From Suillus spraguei (Eukaryota > Basidiomycota > Agaricomycetes > Boletales > Suillaceae): a stretch of 64,000 bases of DNA. Location of the stretch: positions 1 to 64,000 of the forward strand of contig JABCPU010000027.1 of assembly GCA_016800925.1 (NCBI GenBank). Direction: 5' to 3'. Positions within the stretch are counted from its first letter, which is position 1. Each line of letters starts with the position of its first letter. The translations under genes and the position numbers were made by a program. The notes under the pieces are model-generated. The model did not search any database. It was not told where the DNA came from and worked only from the letters and a program-made list of their open reading frames with translations. Below, in pieces: positions 9,564-64,000 of this stretch.

Positions 9564-11143
9564 CAGTGGCTCAAAAAACTGTCCGCATGTTTTGGCATTT
9601 TTCACTATCTATAATATTGTGTGAGAACAAACAAATGCCTCAAAAACATGCTTATACCACATTGTAGTATGGCTTCAGGGCTTTCATTTGAGCCCTACAC
9701 CGTGGGAATCGGTGGAGATATGGTGGAGATACAAGGCTCACAAAATGGTGACTCATGCGGACAGTTTTTTGACTCAAGTATTTTACAGTAATAACCAGGT
9801 ATTCTAGTATTTTGTATGACCTCCCTTGGCTTTAATTACTGCCTCTATCCTTCTAGGCATACTCTCAATTAATTTCTGGCAATCCTCAGCTGTGATCTTC
9901 CCCCATTCCACTGCTACTCTCTCCCAAAGCTCCCATACTCCTTTAGGGGGGTTTTCATAGGCTTGAAGCTTTTTCTTGAGTGTTTCCCAGAGATGTTCAA
10001 TGACATTGACATCAGGAGACTGTGCTGGCCAGTCAAGAACATTGATGTTATGTTCTTCAAACCATTCCCTAGCTCTTCTGGATGTGTGCTTGGGATCATT
10101 ATCCTGTTGGAAAATGATATCTTCTTCATCAATCCCTGATTCTGCCAAGCTAGGCAGCAAGTGGTCATTTAAAATGTCCACATACTGCTCAGCATTCATC
10201 TTCCCCTCAACCTCAGCAAGCATTCCCACACCATTCCATCCCATACAGTCCCATTAACCTCTCTGTCTGTTAGGCCATCTCCCTTCTTTTTCCATACATA
10301 CACCTTCCCATCTGACCCAATCCTATTGATTTTGGTCTCATCTGACCATATAACACGCTTCCAGTCCTCTACAGTCCAGTGTTGATGAGCTAAGGCAAAG
10401 GCTAGTCTTCTCTGCCTATGTTTGATGGAGAGAAGAGGCTTTTTCTTCTTTGTTACTACCTTGAGATGAGCTGCCTTGAGAACATTCCTCACAGTTTGTG
10501 AAGAGACAGGGGTAGTAATGGTGGAATTGATATAATGGGTGGCTTGGGCAGCATTATCAGCCTTTCCTGTAGTGATATGTTGGATAATAGCCCTTTTGTC
10601 AGTAGAGGTAAGCTTGGATGGACATCCTCCACAAGAGTTTTCCTTGTCTGGGTGGCTTTCTTTGATGAACTTGGCCACAGTGGACTTGCATACTCCAGTT
10701 CTAGAGGAAATTTGGCGAGCAGAGAGGCCAGCATAAGACAGAGAGAGGATATTATCTCTTTGAGCAGAGGAGATGGCTTTCATGGTGATTATGACTATGA
10801 TACATGAGATATTCTGGTTTATATAGTTAGATATAGTCATAAAATAACATAATGACACCACTTTATAATTTATATAATAGTGGCATGATTTTTATGGTGT
10901 CATAAATAATGATTTATATAGTTTTAATATACACTCAAAAAACTGTCCACATGAGTCATCATTTCATAAGCCTTATATCTCCACCATATCTCCGCCGATT
11001 CCCACGGTGTAGGGCTCAAATAAAAGCCCTGAAGCCATACTACAATGTGGTATAAGTATGTCCTTGAGGAATTTGTTCATTCTCACACAATATCATAGAT
11101 AGTGAAAAATGTCAAAACATGCGGACAGTTTTTTGAGCCACTG
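9564..11143 (-). mobile_element. Tc1/mariner element, copy A (1580 bp)
   Basis: Flanked by TA on both sides (9562-9563, 11144-11145). The ends are inverted repeats of about 210 bp that open CAGTGGCTCAAAAAACTGTC. Inside each terminal repeat a second copy of the same 20 bp word lies at the inner edge in inverted orientation (about 9755-9775 and 10930-10950). The copy encodes one transposase on the minus strand. It is inserted in the copia RNase H domain, and the empty site can be read by joining the flanks at the TA. Confidence 0.95.
9804..10783 (-). pseudogene. Tc1 transposase, DD34E, frameshifted
   Basis: The start is taken at MKAISSAQRDNILSL (10783); the upstream in-frame ATG at 10861 is less likely. 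The N-terminal half has paired helix-turn-helix DNA-binding features (LSARQISSRTGVCKSTVAKF). The catalytic domain shows WSDETKINRIGSDGK, FQQDNDPKHTS and SPDVNVIEHLWE; the second Asp and the Glu are 34 residues apart, the classic Tc1 DD34E signature. Against copy C a 37 bp deletion at about 10247 removes the KFGGGSLMVWGC block and shifts the frame. The intact protein would be about 338 aa. Both frames are otherwise open, so the break seems recent. Confidence 0.93.
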
Positions 11144-31594: not shown

Positions 31595-31606
31595 GACTCG
31601 AATCAT

Positions 31607-39782: not shown

Positions 39783-39859
39783 CGTGGTCTGCGTTCTGCT
39801 CAGGGACAGTTTTCACTGGGGGACTTATCAGCGCAGACACATCAAATAAGCTTATTAAC

Positions 39860-40159
39860 TGACGGTTTGGTGATTATCCCAGAGTCCCCATCAAATCTCA
39901 CCATACGTAGACGGGACAAGCAAGGATTGTCATATCTAAGCCTGTGGTCTGTACCTGTGCTTGTACAAAATGTTTTCTGTATCACCGTCACAAACTTGCG
40001 CAATATCCTTCGGTTGGTGAAGGTGCCCCGGCCACTACCGGCATTCAATGCTCCCGCTCTGCCGTGGCGTTGCTGCATGATAGGCTCCAATCGTTTATTC
40101 TTGTATGCACCACAGTGGTTCTCTGAATCGTTATTGCAACGTTTTCTCGATATGTTATG
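39860..40159. repeat. P3: partial P-like block
   Basis: It matches 27220-27430 and 27560-27660 (shared 'gattatccc', 'ctgtggtctgtacctgtg', 'accggcat', 'caccacagtggttctc'). It carries only the right part of the P block. Confidence 0.6.
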
Positions 40160-45951: not shown

Positions 45952-46224
45952 CATCAGGAAATTCACACATTCCTTGACGTGCCCTTATGCGGACTTATTT
46001 ACACTTAACTGCCTTGGTGAAATTGAATCTACTTGTCCAAAATTTCAATGTGAATGAATTCAGAAAAAAAAAGTTGAGATATATTAATATACATGTTTTA
46101 TTGTATTTCACACTCAAAAAATATAAGATATGCCAGGTGAATGATGTGAGAGAGAGCAAACAAGTTTTGAGATAAGTGAGTTAAGCTGATTAAGCATGTT
46201 AAGGAATGTGTGAATTTCCTGATG
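45952..46224. mobile_element. MITE-like element (273 bp)
   Basis: The ends form a 27 bp inverted repeat with one mismatch, opening CATCAGGAAATTCACACATT on each strand. The interior is AT-rich and noncoding. No clear target duplication was found, so the superfamily is open. Confidence 0.7.
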
Positions 46225-46396
46225 ACAGAATCCAGACAATTAAGTGACAAGAGGGTGACAGAGATGAACTAAGGGCCAATATGCGATGAAGGGATGACAG
46301 TGAATGATGATGGACATGAGCTGAGGCGGTGGTCAATGATGGTGGTCAAGGTAAAGGTATTTCGGCTATTTCTGGCTGCAAACACTTGGTAATCAC

Positions 46397-46620
46397 TACA
46401 CCCATTTCCCTTACTTTTTTTACAGTATTTTACTTGTCTTACACCCACTGGATGATGGTATGCCCTCAAAGCCTTCTAGTACCTCCTATGCCTGTCAGAA
46501 GCTCGCACTCACTGTCACCAACAGTGGGCTCATCTCCTCCCTTGTTTTAGGCCCATTTCCCTTACTTTTTTTTTACAGGATTTTACTTGTCTTACACCCA
46601 CTGGATGATGGTATTCAGAT
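46397..46620. repeat. Direct repeat pair of about 70 bp
   Basis: CCCATTTCCCTTAC..TTTTACTTGTCTTACACCC..CTGGATGATGGTAT occurs at about 46399-46461 and again at about 46549-46613, with few differences. The function is unknown. Confidence 0.7.
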
Positions 46621-47361
46621 GTCCTCTATGCCTGGACCATGCTTCAAATCAAGAACATTTGAGACTGACCATATGCTATACAACTCTCATTATGTTAATG
46701 CAACACATGCTGACATGATGAGTGGAGTTAGATGGTTGGAATATGAACCAACCCATATAGGTCATGTTACACTATCTTCTCCCCTCAGTCTGTTCCATCA
46801 CAATGTCTTCTTAGAATACGAAAAACAGAAAAGTTCACTGGATTTCAATAATCTCCACGGTCAACGGTTCAGACAAAATCCCAACGGTTGATAATGTGGT
46901 CGTTCATGGGGAAAAAGGGAAAACAACTCTTTCTTGTCTTTGTTTGATCAAAGGACAGGGGGATAAAATCAGTAACTGGTGCGATGCAGTGCTTGTGATT
47001 TTATGAAATGAAGTACAGACTTGTGATGATGATGTGTGATGCTAATGTATGTTGATATGCGATGATGCTACTCCTAACTCTCACTAATTAATGGAGTCAA
47101 CTAAGCTGTCTAGCACTGATCAGACTATCCAATATGTCACTTCGAAACCAACTCTCTGCTGCTCAGGCACTTCATGATGAGTATGACACAGGTCAGAACA
47201 GAGTACACCCTCTTGATGTAGTCTCAAGTGGCCAAGCTATTGATATTGTTGAATGACTGCTAGTCTTATTGTCCTCCCAAATTAACTAATGAAATATATG
47301 AATACAATATTCTCCCCACAGAAATGTGTTCTGTGTCATAAGGAGAACTAGATGTCATCGA
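46621..47361. other. Spacer without recognised gene
   Basis: An open frame to 46891 (SHYVNATHADMMSGVRWLEY) may be a transposon relic, but no family was recognised. Confidence 0.4.
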
Positions 47362-47836
47362 TGTTACAGTTGTACGTGCCCCTATTCATTTTCCCTTTGT
47401 TTCCTTACTTGTATATCATATCACATGACTCTGACTCACATGCTCAACGCATCTGTACAACACATGCCTTCCTTATTAGGATACGCAGTTACGTTCTCAC
47501 GCTTACTTGGTCTGTGCGCACATATTGGCCTATTTAAGCACAGTGTACTTGTAGTAGATTCCCTACTTTAATCTTACTGGGTTTTACCTGGAATCTCCTT
47601 CGCTTAGGTCCCCAACCTAAGTCGTCTTGAATCGTCTCTAAGTCTAAGCACTCCTTAGCCTTAGTCTCTATTCTCGCGGATACCTCTTAGACTTGTCTTT
47701 GAGGCTGAACCCTTGATCGTACTCGGAATGTGTTCCTTGTACTTTCACCTTGTCCTCTTCTGGACATTGTAAGAACTCCCAGCAGACCGTCTGTGTCTTT
47801 TCACTGTCGCTGGTGATGCCACCCCAGTTCGTAACA
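47362..47836 (+). repeat. Ty3/gypsy 5' LTR (Z family, 475 bp)
   Basis: It runs from TGTTACAGTTG to GTTCGTAACA. A TATA-like CCTATTTAAGCACAG lies at about 47520. It is about 95% identical by eye to the inverted 3' LTR at 56449-56932. It is preceded by ATCGA. Confidence 0.92.
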
Positions 47837-48018
47837 AAAGATTAAAGTCCTACTTGATGTTGACTATCCAGTCTTTAACCCTGAACCCTGAACTAGCGTA
47901 CTCATACGCTGAGCAGATCGTCAAGAGAAGCCCTCTGACAGAAGACAAGCCCTAACGGACAGCAAGACAGCGCGTGTAGGCACCGAGAAAGTATAACTCA
48001 TCAGACGAATCATCAACC

Positions 48019-48852
48019 ATGGCGACCAAAGAATTTGAATACAAGATCGGTCAACCAAAAGGTTTTGATGGAGATCGCGATAACTCTCGCGAGTTTATCC
48101 AGTTGTGCAACTTGCACTTTGACATCAATGAAAAGCTTATGCCACCGACAAGCAGAAGATTATCTTCATAACATCCTTCATGACCGAGAAGAATGCCAAA
48201 TCTTGGAAGGAACAGTTCCTTGACCATGCCCAATCAACCGACACCTCTGGACAAAAAGTTGGTTATGGAACCATGGTGGATTTTATGAAAAGTTTTAAAG
48301 AAGCCTTCGAGCCAGTGGATACCAAAGGAACCACACTCACGAAACTCAGGGATCTCAAACAAGGAACTGGGATCTTCACACTTATATCGCTGATTTCGAG
48401 GCACTTGCAGCCAAGGCTCATATCACCGATAATGCAACAAAGATCCAATTCTTCCAAGATGGCCTGAGTTGGGGTATCCTTACAAAGCTTTTCGCACTAG
48501 GAGATGTCTCCGAAGTATTTCGAGACGTTGTGCTGCAATGCGTTTCCATTGACAATTCCTATCATCGCCTTCAAGCCATGAGGACGCGTCATGCCCCACA
48601 ATAGAAGAAGAAGAACTATGGAAATGCACGGTACATTCCGAACCGTGATTCCAACGCAATGATCGTAGATCGAATCTCCGATATGGAGAGATCCGAATGC
48701 ATGAAGAAGGGACAATGCTTCGGATGCAAGAAGACAGGACATCGCATTCATAACTGTCCTGATAGAAAGAAGAAGACCCTGCTCCGACAAACCGAAGTCA
48801 AAGAAGAAGATGAAGACGAAGAAACCGTAAGGCGGATTGTCGAGGATTTTTA
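48019..48852 (+). pseudogene. Ty3/gypsy gag (frameshifted)
   Basis: It starts MATKEFEYKIGQPKGFDGD. The capsid region continues in other frames (IIFITSFMTEKNAKSWKEQF; GTMVDFMKSFKEAFEP; FFQDGLSWGILTKLF). Single-base losses lie at about 48135 and 48373, and a TAG at 48602-48604. The nucleocapsid zinc knuckle CFGCKKTGHRIHNC (CX2CX4HX4C) is intact at about 48718-48760, followed by an acidic end and a stop at 48850. Confidence 0.88.
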
Positions 48853-48879
48853 ACTTGGAGAAACAAAGATTCGACGTAT

Positions 48880-49876
48880 GTTTCTCCCAATATATTACTA
48901 AGACTTGTACGTGCTGTAGGTGAAAGAAAAGAACTTCGTATCCCCATCACCCTCCACTCACGTACTTGCTTAAAAACCATCGACACCACCGCTGTCATTG
49001 ATTTCAGGAGCGGCAGGAACATTCATTTCCGAGGAGTTTGTGAAACTCCATCAAATCACATGACGAAAACTTAAGACACCATTTCAAGTTACAACAGCGG
49101 ATGGAACTCTTATCAAAGGAGGACCGATCACGCACTATTGTCTCCTGGTGGTCAAAATTGATGAACGAACAATGTATGGAAAATTCAATATTACCAAACT
49201 AGGAAGAAGAGATCAAATCCTTCTGGGAATTCCATGGTTACGCGCAATGAACCCAAGTATCGATTGGGCTGCTGAAACACTTATCCTCCCTCGCACGGCA
49301 AAATCGGATGAAATCGAAATTGACATAGATACGGATCGGAAGAAGAATGGATTGCCTCAAATCTTCAATCATCATCCCAAATGGCAACATTCCAGACTTC
49401 CGAAATCCCACGTAATCCCTTTCATTCCCGAAGACCCGAAACCGGAAGTACAAATGCCAAGTACTACAGACCCCACTCCTCGCGTACAACTGCCACGAGC
49501 AGTATCACCGATTCCTCGCGCAGAGAAGCGCAAGAATGAATCCGAACCCGAGCATCGGGTTTGGACAAGAACCTATTGAGCAACGGCCAATAGAAGAACA
49601 GAAGCATGGAAAAAGAAAAGCCGAAGAAGAGATCCCCGGATGAGATACCAACGTACCGAAATTATCCAAATTCTATGTTCCCCCGAAAACTCTGTCAGCT
49701 TCAATCGAGGAAATCCCCGATAATGAAGAACCTGTGCCCTCGTTAATCCCAACAGAGGATGATGACAAATTCAACACCATGCAAGATGTCTGGCACGCAC
49801 CAGAAGTACGAGAAATTTCCTCTTACGAACTAGGTGATGGAGAATTTCTAGTGGAATATGACACGATGGAGTCAGA
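48880..49876 (+). pseudogene. Ty3/gypsy protease and linker (broken)
   Basis: The aspartic protease active site at about 48995-49025 reads D-S-G-A only if one extra T is ignored. Downstream VTTADGTLIKGGPI, DQILLGIPWLRAMNPSIDW and AAETLILP are typical for the gypsy protease C-terminal half. A proline-rich linker to RT follows with stops at 49577 and beyond. Confidence 0.8.
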
Positions 49877-51891
49877 ATGAGAATCATCGAAGAAGTATCC
49901 ATGGATACACCTCTTACACATGATGGAACTTCTCGACTTGAACAGCTCTCCAACTATTCCGCAATTCCCCTCCCTCCTCCAAAGTACAGTAATAAGGCTC
50001 AGGAATTCGCCACGGATGAAAAGGAAAAGAAAAAGAAATCCTTCGAAGAATTGGTCCCAGACTATCTACACGACTTCACAGACGTCTTTGCTAAAGACGG
50101 ATTGAACAAACTACCCCCCAAACGCCCTGGTATTGATCATCGGATTGATACTAAAACCGGTTTCATTCCCCATACGTCTAAGGTCTACCCGCTATCAGAA
50201 AAAGAACGCGCTGCCGAGAAAACGTTTATCGATGAAAACGTTGCAAAAGGTTTCATCTCAGAATCAAAGTCACCCCAAGCCAGTGGCTTCTTCTTTGTGG
50301 GAAAGAAGAGTGGAGAATTGCGTCCCTGTCAAGATTATCGCTACATCAATGATTGGACAGTCAAAAACGCCTATCCGCTCCCACTCCCTATCTCCTTGGT
50401 CGCACGTCTTCACGGAGCACAGTTCTTTACGAAAAATGGATATCCGGTCTGGCTATAACAACATTCGCATTCACCCCGACGATCGCTGGAAAGCTGCCTT
50501 TACTACGGAGTTTGGCCTCTTTGAACCGAATGTCATGTTTTTCGGCCTCTGCAACTCCCCAGCAACTTCCAAGCATACATGAATCGCACTTTCCAGCAGG
50601 AAATCAATGAAGGATGGATGGTTATCTACATGGACAATATCTTGATCTTCTCTACGACTATGGAAGAACATCGTGAACGGACAAGACGGGTTTTGATGAA
50701 AATATGAAAAGAACATCTATTCTTGAAACCGGAGAAATGCACCTTCGATGCAGAAGAAGTAGAATACCTCGGAATGATAATTTGCCCCGGACAAGTTGCT
50801 ATGGATACCGCCAAGACCAAGGAATCTCCGAATGGCCAGTCCCGAAATCTGTAAAAGACGTTCGGTCATTCCTCAGCTTTTGCAACTTCTACCACACGTT
50901 CATTTCCCACTATTCTGACATCGCCCGACCCCTTATCGATTTAACGAAGAAAGATAAGGCCTTTGATTGGTCAACCAAATGTATGGACACCTTCGAAGAA
51001 TTGAAACGACGCTTCACATCTCAACCGGTACTCCGTAACCCTGATCCTTCCCGACAATTTGCCATTGCTACCGACGCTTCGCTCGTAGCAACTGGAGGAG
51101 TTCTCTTACAGACTGATGAGAATGGTGTTTATCACCCATGTGCATATCTTTCACAGTCTTTGAACCCTGCAGAACGCAATTATCAGATCTTTGACCGGGA
51201 ACTCCTTGCCGTAATCCAGGCATTAAACGAATGGCGCCACTATCTTGAAGGAAACCCACACCCTGTCTTGGTATTCACCGACCACAAGAACCTTCTGTAC
51301 TTTAGAAGTGCACAGAAGCTTACCCGCCGACAAGCACGTTGGCAACTGATTTTGTCTATTTATGACATTGAACTGCATCACGTTGCAGGTACTAAATTAG
51401 CAGTACCTGATGCACTATCTCGCCGGCCCGACTACAATTCCGGTAAAGACGATAACGAAGACCAGACTCTCCTCCCCGACGCTCTATTCGTTCGTCTTAT
51501 TGACACCGACTTGAAGGATGTGCTGTCATCCTCTGACCCCCTCGACGACCCTGTCTTCAAAACGGTGTATGATGCCCTCGATGGCGTGTGCCTTCCCCCT
51601 ATGAAATCGGCACTCTCTGACTGGAAGATTGAGGAGAACGTCCTCTATTTTAAGAATCGCGCCTATATTCCACTGGCGCATCGCTCCAATATCCTGAAAA
51701 GGTATCATGATCATCCTACCGCGGGTCACCCCGGTAGATTCAAAACAGAAGAGCTTGTTAAACGAGAGGCTTGGTGGCCCGCTATGGGCTCCTACATTCG
51801 GAAATATGTGGAAGGGTGCGCCCTTTGCCAGCAGATGAAAGCAGATACACATCCTATTCGCCCACCGCTTGCTCCAATCCCCTCATCTGCA
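49877..51891 (+). pseudogene. Ty3/gypsy RT, RNase H and integrase zinc domain (5' half of pol)
   Basis: The RT is clear: DYLHDFTDVFAKDGLNKLPP, KKSGELRPCQDYRYIND, then, after a one-base insertion at about 50440, DIRSGYNNIRIHPDDRWK and FGLCNSPAT. The catalytic box reads YMDN (about 50628) instead of YMDD. RNase H follows in the open frame 50704-51954 (ATDASLVATGGVLLQTD, DRELLAVIQALNEWRHYLEG, VFTDHKNLLYF). Then comes the integrase HHCC domain (HDHPTAGHPGRFKTEELV, CALCQQMK). The frame stops being gypsy at 51891, after PPLAPIPSSAS, where Tc1 copy B begins. The rest of the integrase lies inverted at 58482-59508. Confidence 0.92.
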
Positions 51892-52994
51892 TCTGGATGT
51901 GTGCTTGGGATCATTATCCTGTTGGAAAATGATATCTTCTTCATCAATCCCTGATTCTGCCAAGCTAGGCAGCAAGTGGTCATTTAAAATGTCCACATAC
52001 TGCTCAGCATTCATCTTCCCCTCAACCTCAGCAAGCATTCCCACACCATTCCATCCCATACAGCCCCATACCATTAAAGAACCTCCTCCAAACTTGACAG
52101 TCCCATTAACCTCTCTGTCTGTTAGGCCATCTCCCTTCTTTTTCCATACATACACCTTCCCATCTGACCCAATCCTATTGATTTTGGTCTCATCTGACCA
52201 TATAACACGCTTCCAGTCCTCTACAGTCCAGTGTTGATGAGCTAAGGCAAAGGCTAGTCTTCTCTGCCTATGTTTGATGGAGAGAAGAGGCCTTTTCTTC
52301 TTTGTTACTGCCTTGAGATGAGCTGCCTTGAGAACATTCCTCACAGTTTGTGAAGAGACAGGGGTAGTGATGGTGGAATTGATATAATGGGTGGCTTGGA
52401 CAGCATTATCAGCCTTTCCTGTAGTGATATGTTGGATAATAGCCCTTTTGTCAGTAGAGTAAGCTTGGATGGACATCCTCCACAAGAGTTTTCCTTGTCT
52501 GGGTGGCTTTCTTTGATGAACTTGGCCACAGTGGACTTGCATACTCCAGTTCTAGAGGAAATTTGGCGAGCAGAGAGGCCAGCATAAGACAGAGAGAGGA
52601 TATTATCTCTTTGAGCAGAGGAGATGGCTTTCATGGTGATTATGACTATGATACATGAGATATTCTGGTTTATATAGTTAGATATAGTCATAAAATAACA
52701 TAATGACACCACTTTATAATTTATATAATAGTGGCATGATTTTTATGGTGTCATAAATAATGATTTATATAGTTTTAATATACACTCAAAAAACTGTCCA
52801 CATGAGTCATCATTTTATAAGCCTTATATCTCCACCATATCTCCGCCGATTCCCACGGTGTAGGGCTCAAATAAAAGCCCTGAAGCCATACTACAATGTG
52901 GTATAAGTATGTCCTTGAGGAATTTGTTCATTCTCACACAATATCATAGATAGTGAAAAATGTCAAAACATGCGGACAGTTTTTTGAGCCACTG
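51892..52994 (-). mobile_element. Tc1 element copy B, left end deleted
   Basis: It matches copy A from within the transposase gene to the right terminal repeat; the right end is CCACTG followed by TA (52995-52996). The left terminal repeat and the transposase C terminus, including the catalytic Glu, are missing; the sequence passes straight from gypsy integrase to TCTGGATGTG of Tc1. The transposase (start 52634) also lost one base at about 52459, shifting its frame. Confidence 0.93.
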
Positions 52995-52996
52995 TA

Positions 52997-53278
52997 CTTA
53001 GAGTCAATTCAAGACGACTTAGGTTGGAGACCTAAGCGAAGGAAGTTCCAGGTAAAACCCAGTAAGATTAAAGTAAAGAATCTACTACAAGTACAATGTG
53101 CTTAAATAGACCAATATGTGCGCACGGACCAAGAGAGGCGTGGGAAAGTAAGTGCATATCCAAATAAGGAAGGCAACTATAGTACAGATGCATTGAGCAT
53201 ATGAGTCAGAGTCATGTGACATGATATACAAGTAAGGAGGCAAAGAGAGAATGAATAGGGGCACGTACAACTGTAACA
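52997..53278 (-). repeat. Z solo LTR, first half, displaced
   Basis: Read on the minus strand this is the first 282 bp of a Z LTR, from TGTTACAG to GACTCTAAG, where Tc1 copy B adjoins at TA. It is followed (outside the LTR) by GCAAG on the plus strand (53279-53283). The second half of the same LTR lies at 60798-60987, with the complementary CTTGC beyond it. Confidence 0.92.
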
Positions 53279-53280
53279 GC

Positions 53281-53475
53281 AAGCGCAGATGAATGCAGGC
53301 AACATGCAAGTCTAGGTAGGTCCAAATGAGTGCAGGCAAGCACAAATGAATGCAGGCAAGTCCAGGTAAGTCCAAATGAGTGCAGGTAAGCACAGACAAA
53401 TGCAGGCAAATCCAAATGAACACAAGGAAGCATAAATGAATGCAGGTGAGTTCAGACAAGTCCAAAAGAGTGCAG
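53281..53475. repeat. Minisatellite, roughly 20 bp unit
   Basis: Repeats of AATGAGTGCAGGCAAGTCCA and AATGAATGCAGGCAAGCACA type, imperfect. The opposite-strand version continues at 60988-61160. The Z solo LTR was inserted inside this array. Confidence 0.8.
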
Positions 53476-53695
53476 AAAGGTTCTGAGAAGTGGAAGCCTT
53501 GGAAGTAGAGCATGGTGGTCTGGCTTTTCATACTAGTAGTGAGTGTAGTTTGATGTGCACTTACTGTTTGGAAGCCACAGCAGTGGTGCACATTGCCCCA
53601 AATATTTGTAAGCACATTCTGCAGTACCTGCATAGGTCATGGGTACCCAGCACTCTAACCTGCACCCATACCTGTTGGTACCCCTATCCATGACC

Positions 53696-54676
53696 TGTGG
53701 CAGTGAAACGAAGAAACTATGACTGGCCTAAGTATAAGCGCAACAATAATCCTACTGAAGGTGCTAGTGAAATGTTCAACCCAAGAGGACTGCAATAGAA
53801 GCAATTCCTTCTAAGTTAGTGTGAAGGAAATACAAAAGAATTAATAAAAACAAAGACTTCAGTTGCCAGAGTTAGTGGCGGCTGTGGTATGTCAGCATCA
53901 CTAGTGTGATATCAGCGGTACTCGTGTGGTATTGGTAGCTATAGTGGTTAGCTAGTGGCAACAACAATGAAAGAAACTTCTGCGGAATGAATATACTGCA
54001 ACTACCAGTGGTGTGGTAGTGGTAGCAGTTACAACGGCTCTGTACAAGCAAAGGAGGTGATGAAAGAGGCAATAAAAGAAGGAGCGACCCAGCAAGATTA
54101 CTGGCTGCAGTCCGGTTATGAGTAGAGAAGTCAAGAGTAGTGTGGTACTTCGAGTGGTTAAGTTACTGGTGGTTAAATCAATGAGCATGTTCGAATGGAG
54201 TGAAGTTCAAAGACAGATAGATTTCTACTAGTGAGCATTCTGATACTAAGTCAAAGAGACAGGATGTAACAGGAAGTAACAGTAACGGTATGTACGGTGA
54301 GTCCTTTTAACATATTTCATGTGCATATGGGATAAATAGGTGAGTCCAGTAGTGAGATAGAAAATAAACGAGGTATTAGCAAAGAGGTGCACAGCATGTA
54401 GCGGCCCCTTGAGACATAAGGTAAATCCTGCCATAGGTTTAGTAACGGCGGAAGCAAATTAACTATGAACCAATGGATCTAGACGGATTTGGACAGGACA
54501 TGAGGGCATTGGCGCAAGGATCCAGTAAGGGTCCATGGAATAAGAACAGTTCCACCTTAGCAGAGCGAAAGGCTATATGCTCGCTATAAGGGAATTATTC
54601 AGTTGCCGCTGCAGACGGTAACAAGATGCTTGTCGAAAACAGGGATTTGATGGTCAGCATGACTTTGTTCGCTACA
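53696..54676 (-). mobile_element. X-family LTR-like repeat X4 (981 bp)
   Basis: This is the best-preserved X copy: TGTGGCAGTG to TTCGCTACA on the plus strand, so TG..CA ends. It is nearly collinear with X2 over its whole length. It lies at the edge of an imperfect palindrome (53635-53695, GGTCATGGGTACCC .. TATCCATGACC). There are no matching flank 5-mers and no coding potential. Confidence 0.75.
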
Positions 54677-54950
54677 GTGGGTTACCATACCCATGCCAAT
54701 GCCTAGGGATAGTATCATATTGGACTAGGTACTTATACTACTGACTTGTGTTGTTACCTACATAGGAATTGCATTGCAGGTATGAGTATACCCACTTGAC
54801 CCTCAACCTGTGGGATACCTGTGTAGAGACCCATACCCTTTGGTACCCATAGGTGTATTGGTATAAGTAGCTGAGGGATATGGGTATGGGTTACCCTCTG
54901 GACACCTGTAGGTTTACCCCTGTGGAGCCCTACTAATGATGGAGAATTAG
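54677..54950. repeat. GGTACCC/ACCCATACC-rich dispersed repeat
   Basis: The block is rich in GGGTATGGGTTACC, GGTACCCAT and AGGTTTACCC words, with imperfect inverted ends (GGTTACCATACCCAT .. ATGGGTATGGGTTACC). Related blocks lie at 61375-61545 and 61980-62060. Confidence 0.55.
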
Positions 54951-55680
54951 AATTATCTCAGTTTTTGTCCCTTGTTGGGGCAATTTTATTGTCTCATACA
55001 TGTCTGGACTCAAACTTTATTGTCCATCTTTTTTGGAGGCTCCATAAATTTTCAACTTAGAAAGTCTTGTGATTCATTAAGTGGAAGAGTTAAAGACTTT
55101 GGCCTGGCCAGTGTGGTTACCACAACATAATTGAAATTTGGTTGTTTTGGACTATGCATGTTTGAAACCTGCTGAACTACAGTTTTTTTCTCTTGGAACA
55201 CACATTGGCATTTAGTGCTGCTGCAGTCTGGTCCAGAACCATGGTTCAAACCAGACTTTTGGTCTGGTTCTCTGAGTCCATGGTTCTCTCACCAGCCAGA
55301 ACCAGACCGGAGATCATTTCTCAGTTCTTGGTCATCCCAAATAGTTCTGTTCTGGTTTGGGAAACCTGAATTGTTCCGAACTGTTGACTTCACCATCATT
55401 TGCATCAATGTTGTCATTGTCTGATTGATTGATCTTCGGGATTTGCACTACCTTCAACTTCAGCCAGGATTTGTATTATCAGGCTGCCTTTAGCCTTTTT
55501 CAATGTGAGTACTAACTAATTCAACTGACATATGTTTAACTACATCTTCCTAGGCAGCTATGATCCTCCATAGGCTTCTTGCTGTGACTGATCTCCTAGG
55601 AGACCAGTATTCTGTGGTGCACAGATGTCTTCTCCCTGCCCTGTGTACAAAACAAGGTCATGACGATAAAACTGTGAGTT
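54951..55680. other. Spacer without recognised gene
   Basis: No coding family recognised. It contains runs of CCAGAACCAGACC-type low-complexity sequence at about 55225-55320. A 'CTACAGTTTTTTTCTCTTGGAA' word near 55177 recurs near 62170. Confidence 0.4.
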
Positions 55681-55686
55681 ATCTCT

Positions 55687-56069
55687 CTGAAAATGTCAGA
55701 CTCCTGCACTCTCAATGCTGATGGCACCCTCAAGGACACTTCCAAAATCACATTCCACAATGATCCTGACAACAATGTGCCATGGCATGGTGGGGGGTAA
55801 GTTGTTTGTTTATTCATACATTCTCAACTGACATTATTTATTAGCTACACTTGCTACAGTATCTGACACTCACTTGTATTGCCCGCAATTATCTACCAAT
55901 TCAAGGTAGTGCAGTTCCCTCTGAATGTGCTTTCTCTAATGGGGGAATCACATCAACCTTGCACCACAATGCACTTGCATCATCCACCTTCTCTGCACTA
56001 CAGTTAATGAAGGCCACTTACCGTAATGGACATCTTTCGGCAGCTACAGAGGCAGAGGGGTATTGTTAG
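55687..56069 (+). pseudogene. hAT transposase C-terminal fragment
   Basis: After a possible intron (GTAAGTTG .. TTATTAG, 55798-55845) the translation reads LTCIARNYLPIQGSAVPSE, CAFSNGGITSTLHHNALASS, ALQLMKATYRNGHLSA. This is the hAT-family dimerisation domain (pattern 'ARDYLAIPASSVPSERAFSSGG..T'). The catalytic part is absent. A preceding short exon (MSDSCTLNADGTLKD) may belong to it. Confidence 0.75.
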
Positions 56070-56448
56070 CGACCTAGCCAGGCACTCAGGAATCTGAGTG
56101 GTGTCTGTGATGGGCGCTCTATAAAGAGCAGCGGCCCGTGCATATTGGTTGCCTAGCGCAGAGTGCGCTAGTTGGGTTGGGTTGGAGGTGGGCGTGATGC
56201 GCTGTCTCACAACCATGTCTCAGCGACGGGTTCTATGATGACAAATAGACTTAGAAGCGATGAGCTTCTAAGAAGTCGAAGTATAGACAATAAGCTTATC
56301 AAAGCTTATTGAAAGAAAGTTCAGGGTCGAAGATCAAGTAGATTCAAGTTAAAGAAGTACAAAGGCTATCTGCACATATTTATACGTAAGATTGAAGTGG
56401 AGCGCAAATACGTAAGTATCACTAGATTAAGTATGAAGTCAGATAGCC
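56065..56448. repeat. Possible fragment of another LTR (family W)
   Basis: It begins TGTTAGCGACC, contains a minus-strand CGTATAAATATG TATA-like box (about 56380), and is cut at 56448 by the gypsy LTR. GGCTATCTG (56371) and CAGATAGCC (56440) form an inverted pair. No second copy is in the window. Confidence 0.4.
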
Positions 56449-56932
56449 TGTTACGAACTGGGGTGGCGTCACCAGCGACAGTGAAAAGACACAGCCGGTC
56501 TGCTGGGAGTTCTTACAATGTCCAGAAGAGGACAAGGTGAAAGTACGAGGAACGCGTTCCAAGTACTGTCAGAGATTCGGCCTCAAAGACGAGTCTTAGA
56601 GGTTCTGTGAGAATAGAGACTAAGGCTAAGGAGTGCTTAGACTTAGAGACGATTCAAGACGACTTAGGTTGGAGACCTAAGCGAAGGAGATTCCAGGTAA
56701 AACCCAGTAAGATTAAAGTAAGGAATCTGCTACAAGTACACTGTGCTTAAATAGGCCAATATGTGCGCACAGACCAAGTAACCGTGAGAACGTAACTGCG
56801 TATCCTAATAAGGAAGGCATGTGTTGTACAGATGCGTTGAGCATATGAGTCAAAGTCATATGACATGATATACAAGTAAGGAAACAGAGGGAAAATGAAT
56901 AGGGGCACGTACAACTGTAACATTACCCCCAT
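56449..56932 (-). repeat. Ty3/gypsy 3' LTR, inverted (484 bp)
   Basis: TGTTACGAAC .. CTGTAACA on the plus strand, that is, a Z LTR in minus orientation. A G-rich tract (minus strand ATGGGGGTAATG) adjoins it at 56933-56942, as expected of a polypurine tract. Its outer flank (TAGCC) does not match the ATCGA before the 5' LTR at 47362. Confidence 0.9.
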
Positions 56933-56955
56933 ATTACGGTGAAAGTCACCGGCTT

Positions 56956-58427
56956 TCAAACATCTCTATTGTCGTCATAGACGGGATCATAGTCATCATA
57001 GTTGGCGACGTCTTCATCAGCGGCAGATCCTCCTAGCATGTAAGCCACTTCTTCTTCTGCTACAGTTCTAGCCCGTCGACCTTCCTTTCGTCGTCGACGG
57101 TTAATAAGATACTGTTCCCACCTATGCAGTGCATCATAAAATCCATCGTCCTTCCAGGTAAGCGTAAATGGAGGTTCCTCACGACGCTGGGGGCAGTAGA
57201 TGGACAGATGAGTGGGAGCATGTCGCAGACAGATTTGACACTGATAATTGGGACAATTCTTTTGTCGATGTCCGATAATACCACAGATTCGGCATTTCAT
57301 GTTTTCGTCAGTGTTGGAAATGGACATGCGTAGTGGTGATGGTGAGATAATGGGTGTAGGGCTGGTGGATCTAGCACGCTTCTTTCCTTTCTTTCGTGTC
57401 ATGCGTTTTAAGGCAAGGGCGTTGTTTCGTCGAAGCTGTGCCTGCTGCTTGGTAGTCAAGGTATATGCAGATGCGGGAAGGTCGGGAGTGGTTCCACGTT
57501 CAGCGTCCGCAAGGAGTTCGTTAGAGGAAGAGGGGGAAGTGATGCCTAAGTCTTTTACTAAGACTGGTGAGACGGGGTCCATTGGACCAAGCGATGATGG
57601 GATAGACATAGGGGGATGAATGTGAAGGTCACGAAGACGAGGACCTAGTGCTATTAATTCGGCTACAGGAATTCCTAACCTTTTTGCAGCTTCACACTGT
57701 TCCTCTGTACAGGGCTCATATAACCATGCGGGATGGTCATGGGAGACTACGATGCAAGACGATGAAGTCTGTTGTTCGATTGGAGATGGGGTTCGGGGAG
57801 AAGAGAGGTCGACTTGTGTTTGTTGCAAATCAGTGATAGCTTCTTCGACTAAGTTTCTGGCTGCTCTGGTTTCAGCGACTGATTGCTGGATGGTTTCGAC
57901 GACTGCATTGGTGAGCTGCCTGATCTCCTGGACAGCAGTGCATAAGCCAGCAAGGGCGTCAACACTAGAATACATGCGCGAAGCAGGGGTGCTGGAATAG
58001 GAAGTGGCAAATCTTCCTGCGGAGAGGGAGGTTGAGCAACGCCGAGCAGGCGTTGCTCGACCACGATGTGAATAGCTTCTTCAACATCGCTTTTAAAAGA
58101 ATTGGGAAGAAGCAACATAGCATAAGAATGAATGCGTTTTTGAAGATGTAGGAAGCATTGATGATATGTAGTATCTGTAGCTTCGTTGGCTGTAGCTTCG
58201 ATGAGGGTGGCAGTACGGATAATGTTGACGAGGAGGAGGGCTGGAAAGGCACCTCTTTCTGTGAGGATTCTTTCAATTTCAAGGGCGTGTCCTTCGCATA
58301 GAAGGGCAGCTTCAATGTAGGAAGTGTTGTCGATTTCGGTGGTAAGGGATTCATAGTGTTCAGCATCAGAGTCGGAGTCATTGTTGGCAATGGTGACAGG
58401 GGTGATGTAGGCAGTGGGGAAAGACAT
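56956..58427 (-). CDS. Gypsy ORF3: double zinc-knuckle protein after pol
   Basis: Two overlapping minus-strand frames, 58427-57849 (starting MSFPTAYITPVTIANND) and 57975-56956 (339 aa), almost surely one protein of about 480-490 aa broken by a one-base shift at about 57995. The first half is helical. The second has a coiled-coil-like start (VVETIQQSVAETRAARNLVE), a basic RRNNALALKRMTRKKGKKRA stretch, then CRICGIIGHRQKNC directly followed by CQICLRHAPTHLSIYC, and an acidic Tyr/Asp-rich end. It lies between pol and the 3' LTR, the place env holds in errantiviruses, but it has no signal or membrane segment and looks gag-like. Function unknown. Confidence 0.8.
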
Positions 58428-58481
58428 TTCGATGATGGTAGTTGATCAAGTGCTAGTGCGAGTTGATTGACTGAAGGATAA

Positions 58482-59508
58482 TTAGAGGGCGTGTTGCTTC
58501 TTATAAGTATTCAAGATTCGAGCGGAGTTTTTTAAGTTCTTTTCTGGGAGCCATTCATTATCTCCTGATGAATATCCTTTCCAGGAAACAAGATAACGTC
58601 GGCGAGTGCCGGTTTCTTTGTGAGAAAGGATTGCTTCTACTTCATATTCTTCTTCTTCTTCGATGATGTCAGGTGGTGGTTCGGGGAAGTTCGGGCCATG
58701 TACGTCCGTTTTGCTATAGGACGATAAGACAGAAGCGTGGAACGTGGGATGAATTTTCCACTGTGGAGGGAGTTTGAGTGTGAACGTGATGGGAGATAAG
58801 ACATCAATGATCGGGAAAGGTCCGTATCGCTTTGGGGCAAGTTTCCTTGATGGGAGTTTGAGTCTAAGATTAGCGGCAGATAGCCAAACCTTATCTCCGA
58901 TCTTCCATGGGGTGTACTTATCTCCTCGGGATCGTTCGGCCATTGTCTGCATTGCAATGTTATGACAGGCGATTGCTTCTTCTCTTATCTTCTGCAGAGA
59001 TCGTACTCGATCTTCTGCTGCAGGGACGGATGAGTCAGGGATAAGGTGAGGGATAGCGCGTGGTTCGTATCCCATCATTAGATAGAAAGGTGATGCATTC
59101 CTTGCATCATGTTTTCGGTGGTTGTGGACGAATTCAGCGATTGGTAGGTGTTCTACCCAGTCTTCAGGGTTGTTGCGGCAATAGATGCGTAGATATGTTT
59201 CGAGTTCTTGATTTAGCCTTTCAGTTTGACCATCAGTCTGCGGGTGATAAGCCGTGGATGGAGCGATGACGTAATCGAGAAGTTGGGCAAGTTTCTTAGA
59301 GAAGCGAGATAGGAACTGTGGGCCTCGATCTGATATAACTTTGTCATGGAGTCCAAATCGACGGTAGACGTGTTTCAAAAATAGTTTAGCAACGCCTTCA
59401 GAAGTGATGGTTTTCAAACAAGGGATAATAATTACCCCCTTCGTAAGGCCATGGTCTACCACGACCATGATACTGTCAAAGCCACCAGAGACAGGGAGGT
59501 CAGAGATA
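58482..59508 (-). pseudogene. Ty3/gypsy integrase C-terminal half with chromodomain
   Basis: Read on the minus strand from 59508: SDLPVSGGFDSIMVVVDH, VISDRGPQFLSRF and HPQTDGQTERLNQ. The second Asp and the Glu are 35 residues apart (DD35E). The GPY/F-like module follows (PKRYGPFPIIDVL). A chromodomain closes it (YEVEAILSHKETGTRRRYLV..WKGYSSGDNEWLPE), which in chromoviruses guides insertion to modified histones. The frame is open to 58482. The first catalytic Asp and the N-terminal part are missing here; their upstream continuation is at 49877-51891 on the other strand. The piece ends exactly at the TA of Tc1 copy C. Confidence 0.93.
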
Positions 59509-60795
59509 CAGTGGCTCAAAAAACTGTCCGCATGTTTTGACATTTTTCACTATCTATGATATTGTGTGAGAATGAACAAATTCCTCAAGGACATACTTAT
59601 ACCACATTGTAGTATGGCTTCAGGGCTTTTATTTGAGCCCTACACCGTGGGAATCGGCGGAGATATGGTGGAGATATAAGGCTTATAAAATGATGACTCA
59701 TGTGGACAGTTTTTTGAGTGTATATTAAAACTATATAAATCATTATTTATGACACCATAAAAATCATGCCACTATTATATAAATTATAAAGTGGTGTCAT
59801 TATGTTATTTTATGACTATATCTAACTATATAAACCAGAATATCTCATGTATCATAGTCATAATCACCATGAAAGCCATCTCCTCTGCTCAAAGAGATAA
59901 TATCCTCTCTCTGTCTTATGCTGGCCTCTCTGCTCGCCAAATTTCCTCTAGAACTGGAGTATGCAAGTCCACTGTGGCCAAGTTCATCAAAGAAAGCCAC
60001 CCAGACAAGGAAAACTCTTGTGGAGGATGTCCATCCAAGCTTACCTCTACTGACAAAAGGGCTATTATCCAACATATCACTACAGGAAAGGCTGATAATG
60101 CTGTCCAAGCCACCCATTATATCAATTCCACCATCACTACCCCTGTCTCTTCACAAACTGTGAGGAATGTTCTCAAGGCAGCTCATCTCAAGGCAGTAAC
60201 AAAGAAGAAAAGGCCTCTTCTCTCCATCAAACATAGGCAGAGAAGACTAGCCTTTGCCTTAGCTCATCAACACTGGACTGTAGAGGACTGGAAGCGTGTT
60301 ATATGGTCAGATGAGACCAAAATCAATAGGATTGGGTCAGATGGGAAGGTGTATGTATGGAAAAAGAAGGGAGATGGCCTAACAGACAGAGAGGTTAATG
60401 GGACTGTCAAGTTTGGAGGAGGTTCTTTAATGGTATGGGGCTGTATGGGATGGAATGGTGTGGGAATGCTTGCTGAGGTTGAGGGGAAGATGAATGCTGA
60501 GCAGTATGTGGACATTTTAAATGACCACTTGCTGCCTAGCTTGGCAAAATACTAGAATACCTGGTTATTACTGTAAAATACTTGAGTCAAAAAACTGTCC
60601 GCATGAGTCACCATTTTGTGAGCCTTGTATCTCCACCATATCTCCACCGATTCCCACGGTGTAGGGCTCAAATGAAAGCCCTGAAGCCATACTACAATGT
60701 GGTATAAGCATGCTTTTGAGGCATTTGTTTGTTCTCACACAATATTATAGATAGTGAAAAATGCCAAAACATGCGGACAGTTTTTTGAGCCACTG
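59509..60795 (+). mobile_element. Tc1 element copy C, internally deleted (1287 bp)
   Basis: Both terminal repeats are present and TA-flanked (59507-59508, 60796-60797). Compared with copy A about 325 bp are missing near the 3' end of the transposase gene. The left flank is gypsy integrase and the right flank is the second half of a Z LTR, so the two sides come from different places. Confidence 0.94.
59869..60555 (+). pseudogene. Tc1 transposase, C-terminal deletion
   Basis: The frame is open from MKAISSAQRDN through the helix-turn-helix region, WSDETKINR and KFGGGSLMVWGCMGWNGVGM to NDHLLPSLA, then KY and stop at 60555. The second Asp and the Glu of DD34E are lost, so it is catalytically dead but keeps a whole DNA-binding half. 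It is the only copy here with an unbroken N-terminal frame including the GGGSLMVWG block. Confidence 0.93.
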
Positions 60796-60797
60796 TA

Positions 60798-60987
60798 TAA
60801 GCACTCCTTAGCCTTAGTCTATTCTCGTAGAACCTCTTAGACTTGTCTTTGAGGCCGAACCCTTGATCGTACTCGGAACACGTTCCTTGTACTTTCACCT
60901 TGTCCTCTTCTGGACATTGTAAGAACTTCCCAGCAGACCAGCTGTGTCATTTCACTGTCGCTGGTGACGCCACCCCAGTTCGTAACA
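60798..60987 (+). repeat. Z solo LTR, second half, displaced
   Basis: TAAGCACTCC .. GTTCGTAACA matches positions 300-475 of the Z LTR. CTTGC follows (60988-60992). Together with 52997-53278 it makes one full LTR interrupted at a TA. Confidence 0.92.
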
Positions 60988-61160
60988 CTTGCCTGCACTT
61001 TCGCACTTGCCTGCATTTGTTTGTACTTGCCTGCACTCATTTGGACCTGCCTGGACTTGCATGCATTTATCTGTGCTTGCCTATGCTCATTTGGACTCAC
61101 ATGGACGGGCCCACCTGCACTCATTTTCACTTGCCTGAGCTTATCTGCTTGTGTCTGCTC
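60988..61160. repeat. Minisatellite, roughly 20 bp unit (opposite strand to 53281)
   Basis: CTTGCCTGCACTCATTTGGA-type units, imperfect; the reverse complement of the array at 53281-53475. Confidence 0.8.
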
Positions 61161-61374
61161 TCACCTGTACCTCCACTCCTCTCATTCTAGTGCCTTCAGG
61201 TGTCATTCGCATATGTTCAAGCCATGTCAGCATTTGCTGAGGTGCGCTGGGCATATGCATCAAGCACTGCCAAAAGGCTTGTACCTTGAGGGAGAAGAGG
61301 CTGATCTTGAGGATGGTTGGGATGATATTATATCAACTTGACCTATGTATCTATAGCATATTCTATTGTCACAC

Positions 61375-61545
61375 CTGTCAAGTACCCACATACCCACTGC
61401 ATACCCACCACTACCCACCACTACCTGCCACTACCCATCATGAGACCTGTACCCATTGGTACCCTTGGGTGTACAGGTACAGGTGCAGGTCTGACCTTCA
61501 ATACCTGCAGGTTTACCCATGCTGATCCCTAACACCCCCACCCAT
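61375..61545. repeat. ACCCAC/GGTACCC-rich repeat
   Basis: Runs of TACCCACCACTACC, then GTACAGGTACAGGTGCAGGT and CAGGTTTACCCATGC, related to the block at 54677-54950. Confidence 0.55.
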
Positions 61546-61689
61546 CAAGTGCCTCGTCATTGAGGTTTATACACAAATAGTGGAGACAAAATGATCAATA
61601 AGAGCAAGAGAGAGCAGCAAGTTGAGATCAGAGAGTGAGGGGGAGTAACCAGTGAAAGCAGCAAGCAAGGCCAGACTGAGGGCAGCTGA

Positions 61690-61825
61690 ACAATGAGTGT
61701 GAATATGCATGAATAAATGGGTGCAAACAAGCACAAATGAACAAGTATAGACAAATCCAGGAAAAATGAGTATAGAGTCTCAGACAAGTACAGACAAGCC
61801 CAAATGAGTGCAGGCAAGTCCAGAC
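61690..61825. repeat. Minisatellite, third block, orientation as 53281
   Basis: CAAGCCCAAATGAGTGCAGGCAAGTCCAG-like units, inverted relative to the block at 60988-61160, so the two could pair as a long hairpin. Confidence 0.65.
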
Positions 61826-62728
61826 AAATGAACCTGAAAGCAAGTGAAAGAAAAATTAAAGACAAGCAGTACAAATATATAAATCAAAACATACCTGTAT
61901 TATACAAACCTCAAACTCAGTGTTGTGTTGAAGAATCGCAAGAGTACTACATCAAAGTAATTACCATATATGGAAGTGACGGGCATGGTCTCAAAACCCA
62001 CCCACCAGTACCCTTACCCGTGACCCACGCGGGTTACTCATACCTGCAGAACCCTAGCGCCTTCTCCTTCACCCCAAATAAATTGGTTTGGACTCGGCCA
62101 TTTGCTGTACAGCCTGTACTAACGCCTCGTTAATCAATAATTGATGCAATAGGTACCGGTAGAACTTACTGCAGTTTTTTTCTCTTGGAATATGTGAACC
62201 CACTGTCCTGCTATGAGACGATAAGGTAGGGAGCGGGCGCGCTAGATAACAAGGTAAATCTCAGTCTATTGAAAAGAACTGAGATGTTTTTGCGCTTGAG
62301 CGCCTACTGTAAGGTGAGTGGAATAGCAACGAAAAATAAAACTAATCAAACGGCATATTTCGTAGCGAAACGAAATCAAACGGCATATTGCACAGCGTAA
62401 CGACGTCGTCACGCTGGCACACGCTATTGGCCATTCTGGCCTTGCACTCGGACCACTCTTATCTCTTCTCGCTCGTACCTATCTCGGATCCTTCGGATTC
62501 CAACACCCACTTGTCAACACAACGCGCCAAGTACATAAATGCAAACAAGTCATGAAAATTTTCTAAAAAAGTAGCGCCAACAAATGTGTGAATTTACTGA
62601 TAGGCTGAAGGGTATTACTCGGGTTACTAGGGGTTGCCTCCTTGAGTTCAGCCCTTCAGGCCTCAGGGTTCAATTTACTGGCCGCCATAAGTGCTTCATG
62701 ACGCCGCAGGTACAGGGTGTACTAGTAC
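61826..62728. other. Spacer upstream of the MFS gene
   Basis: It contains a GGTACCC-type stretch (61980-62060) and a tandem pair of about 30 bp, AATCAAACGGCATATT(T/G), at about 62345-62405. No gene recognised. Confidence 0.5.
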
Positions 62729-64000
62729 ATGCCAAATCCCCCATTTCTGTCGTCCATGTCCACACCCCTCCCAAGTGATGAAACTAAAATACAAGTTTCC
62801 GACAGTGCTTTGCAACCCGTCAAAAGCACTGGCGATCCCAATCATGCCAACAGCTTAGACTCGTCTGATTTTCCCGAGGGTGGTGCAACAGCTTGGGGTA
62901 CAGTGCTAGGAGCGTAAGTGTTTTTAAATTCTTATTGTTGCATATTCGTAATCAAACATCGTCAAGTTTTTTAATACAATTCTGTGGTGCCGGGTAAATT
63001 GACTCAGTATTTACGGACCAAATTCCGCTAATCACTTTCTAGATATTCCACCTCCTATGGCGTCTTCCAGGGTAAGGTCCGGTGAATTGTTTTACAGAAC
63101 AAGTTGAACATCACGGCGATACACAGACTTTTATGCCCAAACTTATCTGACCAATTGTACACCATCTGCAATCGCGTCAGTGAGCTCTAGACTTGAGCTG
63201 TTTCGTTACTACCAATGCTTACAATGGTACAGCTGGATAGGAAGTGTTAATGCATTATTGCTAACGTCAGTCGGTCTCGTGTCAGGAAGGTTGCTTGACC
63301 GAGGTGCATTGTATGTGTACAGGCAGTTCACGCAGTATCAGTGTTCCTGATCGTACATTCAGCTATCATGTGATGAAAATTGGCTGTCTCCTCCAGTGTC
63401 TCTTCCTCTTTATGCTGTCACTAGCGAAACCGAATGGATATTATCAAGTAGATCTGGTTTTGTCCGCTGCATATCCCAATTGACAACAATATCAGATCTT
63501 CCTTTCTCAAGGTATAGGTTCCGGGGTTGCAATAGGCCTTACACATGTTCCCTCTATTGCCGTGGTATCTCATCACTTCCAGCGACGTAGACCTCTCGCG
63601 ATGGGATTCGTCGTTGCAGGAGCGTCGATGGGTTCAATCTTGCAGCCGATCATGCTCAACCACCTCATCAATGGAAGTCTTGGATTTGCAAATGGTGTCC
63701 GTGCTAGCGCTGGCATGATCAGCGGCTTACTTCTCATAGCATATCCTCTGATGCGCACAAAGGCTTCCACCGAAACCCCAGGCCGTTAGCTACACTCGTA
63801 TTTTACAAAACTCGTTGAGAGACTGTGCTTATGTTTGTGCGTGTTTATGGTGAGTGAGCAACACTTGGTGGCGTGAACTTTCAAACGGTATCCACTGCCT
63901 AGGGGGATTACTTTCGAAGTCGGATTTCTTTTCATATCATTTTATCTCCAATTAGACTCCCGCATGCACGGCCTTAGCAAGGGATTTTCGTTTTATTCGG
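62729..64000 (+). CDS. MFS carrier, monocarboxylate-transporter type, partial, frameshifted
   Basis: Exons 62729-62913, 63043-63071, 63127-63175, 63233-63310, 63363-63447, 63496-about 63784, about 63785-63849 and 63900 onward, past the window end. The start may be 62729 or MSTPLPSDETK (62756). Helix 1 with AWGTVLGAYSTSYGVFQ, then FYAQTYLTN, WIGSVNALLLTSVGLVSGRL, CLLQCLFLFMLSLAKP, FLSQGIGSGVAIGLTHVPSI and RRRPLAMGFVVAGASMGSIL give helices 1-6 of the fungal MCT-like family (plasma-membrane monocarboxylate or related carriers). A TAG at 63787 ends that frame, but SLRDCAYVCACL and ITFEVGFLFISFYLQLD continue the family pattern one frame over, so there is a one-base shift near 63784. The substrate is unknown. 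Confidence 0.85.

What the first reader, a model, noticed from the sequence alone, without database searches (positions are those of the whole stretch)
51892..60987. A 7-8 kb inversion between two Tc1 copies, proven by re-pairing a split LTR and a split gypsy element
Tc1 copy B has gypsy integrase on its left and the inverted first half of a Z LTR on its right. Copy C has inverted gypsy integrase C-terminus on its left and the second half of a Z LTR on its right. Flipping the segment between them rejoins both at once: the LTR halves meet at a duplicated TA and are then flanked by a perfect CTTGC / CTTGC duplication inside the same minisatellite, and the gypsy pol becomes collinear with both LTRs in one orientation. 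The Tc1 copies lie in opposite orientation, as recombination between inverted repeats needs. Seen directly: junctions, TA sites, the 5 bp duplication. Inferred: the mechanism and order of events.
Basis: partly seen in the sequence, partly recalled or inferred. Interest (0 to 1): 0.88.

Follow-up and report, generated by a model that had tools for sequence, protein, structure and literature searches.

The report
Small inversion between two Tc1 transposons
In one of two versions of this chromosome region found in the same genome assembly, a stretch of about 6.5 thousand letters lies backwards between two mirror-image jumping genes, while the other version keeps the original order: a clean natural example of a well-known way in which mobile DNA rearranges chromosomes.

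Summary
Tc1 copies B (51892-52994) and C (59509-60795) lie in opposite orientation; their shared arms (about 1.04 kb) differ by one base. The 6,510 bp between them are inverted. Decisive evidence: contig C359 of the same assembly carries the right flank (8 substitutions in 3007 bases), the inner segment in the opposite orientation, and an intact 474-bp solo Z LTR with CTTGC on both sides and no Tc1. C359 has the ancestral order; the window is derived. The gypsy integrase halves complement each other, with about 34 nt missing at copy B.

The rejoined gypsy is not one insertion: its LTRs have different 5-bp flanks (ATCGA, GGCTA), differ at 25 of 474 positions (four control pairs: 2-9), and lead to two contigs, C836 and C359, each with an unoccupied site.

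Mechanism: homologous recombination between inverted Tc1 copies fits best. B and C share a variant seen in 1 of 40 other typed copies, so hybrid-element insertion by transposase, which yields identical copies, stays a real rival. Misassembly is unlikely but untested. Known kind, unusually well documented.

The parts
46246..47361 (+). left flank (locus X); allele on C836:183386-184500 (-), where the gypsy site is unoccupied
   Evidence: 4 substitutions and 1 indel, 1115 aligned bases
47357..47361 (+). ATCGA, expected target duplication of the left gypsy LTR; not matched at the other LTR
47362..47836 (+). left Z-family gypsy LTR
47837..51891 (+). gypsy internal left part; ends inside integrase
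   Evidence: RNase H-like and Integrase_H2C2 in 50704-51891; gag and RT regions recognised by eye only (49877-50455 had no Pfam match); relatives
51892..52994 (-). Tc1 copy B, lacking its outer 513 bp; private 1-bp deletion near 52459; inner terminal repeat intact
52995..52996 (.). TA at the inner end of copy B
52997..53278 (-). first part of the split solo Z LTR, inverted
   Evidence: 5 mismatches in 282 to C359:86208-86489
53279..53283 (-). GCAAG = CTTGC on the other strand, target duplication of the solo LTR
53284..56448 (-). rest of the inverted locus-Y segment (minisatellite and TE-derived DNA); opposite orientation on C359
56444..56448 (-). TAGCC = GGCTA on the other strand, flank of the right gypsy LTR; part of the unoccupied site on C359
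56449..56922 (-). right gypsy LTR, inverted
56923..59506 (-). gypsy internal right part, inverted: integrase C-terminal region with Tf2-type SH3 and chromodomain, then an extra zinc-knuckle ORF before the LTR
59507..59508 (.). TA at the inner end of copy C; TA stands there in 8 of 9 gypsy relatives read across both edges
59509..60795 (+). Tc1 copy C, both terminal repeats present, 330-bp internal deletion
60796..60797 (.). TA at the outer end of copy C
60798..60987 (+). second part of the split solo Z LTR
   Evidence: 3 mismatches in 190 to C359:86492-86681
60988..60992 (+). CTTGC, second target duplication of the solo LTR
60993..64000 (+). right flank (locus Y), collinear with C359 up to position 89691
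   Evidence: 8 substitutions and 8 indels, 3007 aligned bases, counted from 60988
9564..11143 (-). Tc1 copy A, used for comparison only

Best explanation
The C447 haplotype carries a recent inversion of the DNA between two Tc1 copies in opposite orientation. One Tc1 sat in the integrase gene of a gypsy element, the other in a solo LTR of the same retroelement family, 6.5 kb away. A reciprocal exchange inside the shared arms of about 1.04 kb (non-allelic homologous recombination) flipped the stretch between them, so each Tc1 now separates halves of two different hosts. Shown: the derived structure, the uninverted allele, the polarity. Inferred: the exchange by homologous recombination, and that both insertions preceded it. 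Gene conversion, or origin of one copy from the other, made the arms alike. Separately, recombination between two gypsy copies at different loci (X, allele C836; Y, allele C359) built the chimeric gypsy.
For: C359 has the segment in the opposite orientation and an intact solo LTR with both CTTGC copies, and neither Tc1 nor gypsy at these sites. Its gypsy target lies in a repeat that reads through unbroken in 39 of 39 other rows of a capped list, so C359 is ancestral there. Both Tc1 inner ends are intact, each is flanked by TA, and no base of the LTR is lost. Gypsy integrase pieces complement each other to within about 34 nt; their identities to relatives are correlated (rho 0.70 over 28 or all 30 loci, 0.71 over 27 without one short match), which is weak evidence, as relatives resemble each other throughout. 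The arms differ by one 1-bp indel. No new target site is seen, as expected for homologous exchange (criterion from PMC8225341, section 15 read).
Against: Arms are too alike to map an exchange point or show chimeric copies, the feature that settled the Galileo case (PMC2775673, section 10 part 1 read). TA flanked all seven Tc1 copies from elsewhere that I checked, so exchanged duplications cannot be seen. B and C share 914C, found in 1 of 40 other typed copies, and that copy differs at 1098: independent insertions would share this rarely unless converted. Copy B lacks its outer 513 bp and the gypsy lacks about 34 nt, unexplained by a simple flip. The uninverted allele carries neither Tc1 nor gypsy, so the immediate parent chromosome is unseen. 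No reads were available.
Confidence: 0.58

Rival explanations
1. Hybrid-element insertion: the Tc1 transposase paired one end of a Tc1 copy with the opposite end of its sister-chromatid copy and inserted that pair into the nearby second site. This inverts the DNA in between and leaves two identical Tc1 copies in opposite orientation.
For: The product is almost the same as for homologous exchange, except that the two copies are identical (PMC2775673, section 10). B and C share the pair 914C+1098A; of 40 other copies typed at 914 only one has C, and it has 1098G. Six of six copies tested (L003-L008) have a 357-residue open frame starting with M, and 29 of 31 other copies matching about 1 kb are 99-100% identical to B, so the family was recently active.
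Against: Identical arms are not rare in this family: 4 of 28 pairs among 8 other copies are identical there. Gene conversion during homologous exchange, or a local hop before it, also explains the shared variant. No excision scar was looked for.
Confidence: 0.25
2. Misassembly: the order is uninverted in the organism, and the assembler flipped the segment between the 1.04-kb inverted repeats.
For: Inverted near-identical repeats are a classic cause; C359 shows the other order.
Against: The window has no N, and six nearly identical Tc1 copies of 1617 bp are read through with different flanks, so reads longer than the arms were probably used. Even then C447 would carry two Tc1 insertions in inverted order.
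Confidence: 0.1
3. Two independent breaks rejoined by end joining, with Tc1 at the junctions by coincidence.
For: Copy B's outer junction with gypsy has no overlap of bases and looks like end joining (read by eye).
Against: Both inversion junctions keep exact Tc1 ends with TA, and the LTR loses no base.
Confidence: 0.03
4. The X-Y join in the gypsy is a contig chimera, so gypsy-left does not belong to locus Y at all.
For: Left and right flanks lie on C836 and C359; mismatched target duplications and LTRs; no reciprocal junction found with two patterns.
Against: The integrase pieces meet within about 34 nt at the Tc1 target, unlikely by chance in an element of over 7 kb. The inversion itself, shown by the LTR, does not depend on it.
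Confidence: 0.15

Closest known systems
Galileo-generated inversions of Drosophila buzzatii (2j, 2q7, 2z3; Delprat et al. 2009, PMC2775673; passages and section 10 part 1 of 2 read)
   Same: Two copies of one DNA transposon in opposite orientation at the breakpoints; the non-inverted chromosome examined lacks the insertions; polymorphic.
   Different: Here Tc1 with TA duplications, only 6.5 kb, breakpoints nested in other mobile elements, and chimeric copies cannot be shown because the arms are nearly identical.
Alternative (reversed-ends) transposition inversions of maize Ac (PMC8225341; passages and section 15 read, which also names impala of Fusarium and Sleeping Beauty as examples of such rearrangements)
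   Same: Inversion with DNA transposons at both breakpoints.
   Different: There the two copies start in direct orientation, the segment between them is lost and a new target duplication forms; here the copies are inverted and the segment between them is kept.
Recombination between LTR-retrotransposon copies (Ty-type ectopic recombination; recalled, not looked up)
   Same: Chimeric element whose LTRs come from two insertions with different target duplications.
   Different: Here the reciprocal product was not found, and deletion cannot be told from translocation.

Membership tests
Inversion by homologous recombination between inverted transposon copies | two homologous copies in opposite orientation at the breakpoints | tested here: met
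Inversion by homologous recombination between inverted transposon copies | uninverted chromosome with single, unbroken target sites | tested here: met
   C359: intact solo LTR, unoccupied gypsy site
Inversion by homologous recombination between inverted transposon copies | target duplications exchanged between the two copies | tested here: inconclusive
   TA at the three remaining ends; the outer TA of copy B is deleted. The flanking LTR and gypsy halves are exchanged.
Inversion by homologous recombination between inverted transposon copies | both copies chimeric | tested here: inconclusive
   arms differ by one 1-bp indel only
Hybrid-element insertion by transposase | the two copies are identical | tested here: inconclusive
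   identical in the shared arm bar one base, sharing a rare variant; outer parts deleted differently
Reversed-ends transposition | copies in direct orientation before the event and loss of the DNA between them | tested here: not met
   inverted copies now, segment retained
Tc1-type transposon | Tc1 transposase domains, terminal inverted repeats, TA duplication | tested here: met
   HTH_Tnp_Tc3_2 in copy C; homologues carry PF01498 and mostly PF13358; terminal repeats of about 211 bp, 92% complementary; TA on both sides in 6 of 6 copies and in C481
Single-insertion Ty3/gypsy element of the Z family | matching 5-bp target duplications and near-identical LTRs | tested here: not met
   ATCGA vs GGCTA; 25/474 differences; controls 4 of 4 matched, with 6, 4, 2 and 9 differences

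The most novel reading that the evidence does not exclude
A natural inversion made by a Tc1-family transposase through hybrid-element insertion: a single Tc1 inverted its neighbourhood while duplicating itself 6.5 kb away, leaving twin copies that share a variant rare among the genome's other copies.
Probability: 0.24. Interest if true: 0.6.

Novelty: new member of a known kind. Interest (0 to 1): 0.4.

Why it matters
Transposon-made inversions are often argued from breakpoints alone. Here nested elements act as internal rulers, and both the inverted and the uninverted allele sit in one assembly, so polarity is clear and the LTR breakpoint is exact to the base. It also shows that one contig can hold two stacked rearrangements made by two element classes, which matters for reading structural differences between haplotypes.

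Tried and rejected
Higher divergence inside the inverted segment (3.58% and 2.44%) than in the flanks (0.27% and 0.36%) at first looked like recombination suppressed by an old inversion. Rejected: 57 of 60 and 32 of 36 differences are transitions, 31 and 18 of them at CpG, clustered in TE-derived stretches, and the Tc1 copies are nearly unchanged, so the inversion is young.

A match of window 45952-46224 on C359 looked like a second inversion; its ends are inverted repeats of each other, so it is probably a small transposon copy (by eye only).

Reciprocal products of the gypsy-gypsy join: two junction patterns, up to 2 mismatches, 0 hits each. Second alleles of the sequences beyond the join: for C359:73500-77573 the best other row is 88%; for C836:182704-183389 no other row covers the whole query, its repeat part reaching 98%; for C836:164000-172000 the best other row is 94% and covers the second half only. 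Only the best candidates are scored, so deletion, translocation and collapsed assembly remain open.

Locating the gypsy-gypsy exchange by identity profiles against nine relatives failed: the family is a mosaic, and for several relatives only part was held. A paper search for an extra ORF behind pol gave 0 papers with 3 of 5 terms.
Full report
What was checked. The window is bases 1-64000 of contig C447 of an unnamed 86.2-Mb assembly with 1256 contigs. From its size and elements I take it for a fungus; no call names it. To the right of B is the inverted first part of a Z LTR (52997-53278), to the right of C its second part (60798-60987). CTTGC flanks both outer edges when the segment is read in reverse.

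Independent proof of the inversion. Searching the assembly with the right flank and with the inner segment found one other contig with near-complete matches to both, C359. There the right flank is in the same orientation (8 substitutions and 8 indels, 3007 aligned bases) and the inner segment in the opposite one (C359:84530-86490 and 79066-80545, the two parts separated by about 4 kb that is absent from C447). Between inner segment and flank stands an intact 474-bp solo LTR at 86208-86681, with CTTGC on both sides and no Tc1. The two LTR parts of the window match it end to end with 5 of 282 and 3 of 190 mismatches and no base lost; at the two target bases the window has TA and C359 has TC. One repeat with equal scores at C447:100.5 kb and C359:124.1 kb suggests that the contigs stay collinear that far. 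So C359 is the other allele with the ancestral order, and the inversion is on C447.

The gypsy side. Thirty related loci from the assembly were compared piecewise, without joining the halves. In 29 of them both pieces lie on one strand. In the nine whose alignments reach both edges, 33-34 nt separate the pieces, in eight of nine ending in the TA that borders the right piece. So Tc1 probably inserted at that TA, and later about 32 nt of gypsy, the outer TA and 513 bp of Tc1 were lost at copy B, with no shared bases at the junction (the last by eye). Identities of left and right pieces to these loci correlate (rho 0.70 over 28 or all 30, 0.71 over 27). That is what one element split by Tc1 would give, but weak evidence in a family of relatives.

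A second rearrangement. The LTRs at the two ends of this gypsy do not belong together. Their outer flanks are ATCGA and GGCTA. Four LTR pairs of the same family, each about 7.1 kb apart, that I picked from the list, all have matching 5-bp duplications, and differ at 6, 4, 2 and 9 positions, against 25 of 474 here. The left flank is allelic to C836 (4 substitutions in 1115), the right side to C359. Each contig has an unoccupied site inside a repeat that other copies carry unbroken: several at X (adjoining matches), 39 of 39 other listed rows at Y. C447 thus joins two loci through a chimeric gypsy. C836 carries another gypsy copy 0.7 kb away, at a different site. Two patterns for the reciprocal product gave no hit, and no second allele of the sequences beyond the sites was seen (capped lists). 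Deletion, translocation and contig chimera are not told apart.

Mechanism. Keeping the segment between inverted copies, exact Tc1 ends and no new target site fit homologous exchange and not reversed-ends transposition (PMC8225341, section 15). The other candidate is hybrid-element insertion, which differs only in leaving identical copies (PMC2775673, section 10). B and C share 914C; of 40 other copies typed, 39 have T and one has C, and that one differs from them at 1098. This favours a common recent origin of the two arms, by gene conversion, local hop or hybrid insertion. Because 4 of 28 pairs among eight other copies are identical in the arm, it is a hint and no more. I put homologous recombination first, hybrid insertion at about one quarter.

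Age. The Tc1 family is young: 29 of the 31 other copies listed over about 1 kb are 99-100% identical to B, the other two 97-98%, and six of six copies tested have a 357-residue frame. The inversion must be at least as young as the insertions. The greater divergence inside the segment is mostly transitions, about half at CpG, in TE-derived DNA and says nothing about the age of the inversion.

Assembly. The window has no N and near-identical 1.6-kb Tc1 copies are resolved, so long reads were probably used. No reads could be examined, so misassembly is held at about 0.1.

Verdict. Real and well supported, of a known kind. Paper searches (listings seen, two papers read in part) showed transposon-made inversions in flies and maize. 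I saw nothing in the listings that I could tie to this locus, but as I do not know the organism I cannot say whether this inversion is in print.

Noticed in passing
window 56959-58427 (-); similar DNA in C836:175285-178189: The gypsy carries an extra zinc-knuckle ORF between the chromodomain and the 3' LTR, besides a gag-like CCHC motif near 48720 (seen by eye). Query 56959-57975 had no homologue at E <= 0.001 in the protein collection; Pfam gives only zf-CCHC.
   Followed up: partly
G000 C803:16445-18056, C297:86620-88230, C403:158426-160034, C928:19485-21097, C458:333860-335472, C813:197546-199181: Fold-back Tc1 derivatives: two inverted arms of the same Tc1 end abutting each other, five of the six with the same junction positions, so apparently an amplified palindromic form.
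   Followed up: no
C359:80546-84529 versus window 54952-54955: About 4 kb present on C359 only, at a point where four window bases are repeated on both sides; probably another polymorphic insertion.
   Followed up: partly
window 53710-54627 and 56023-56398 versus C359: Allelic differences in TE-derived stretches are nearly all transitions, about half at CpG, which suggests cytosine methylation of repeats.
   Followed up: partly
window 30525-44959: Large direct repeats spaced about 6.0-6.2 kb, pieces 66-96% alike.
   Followed up: no
window 45950-46224: Short element with inverted terminal sequences (by eye), 94% identical copy on C359:78402-78665; MITE-like.
   Followed up: no
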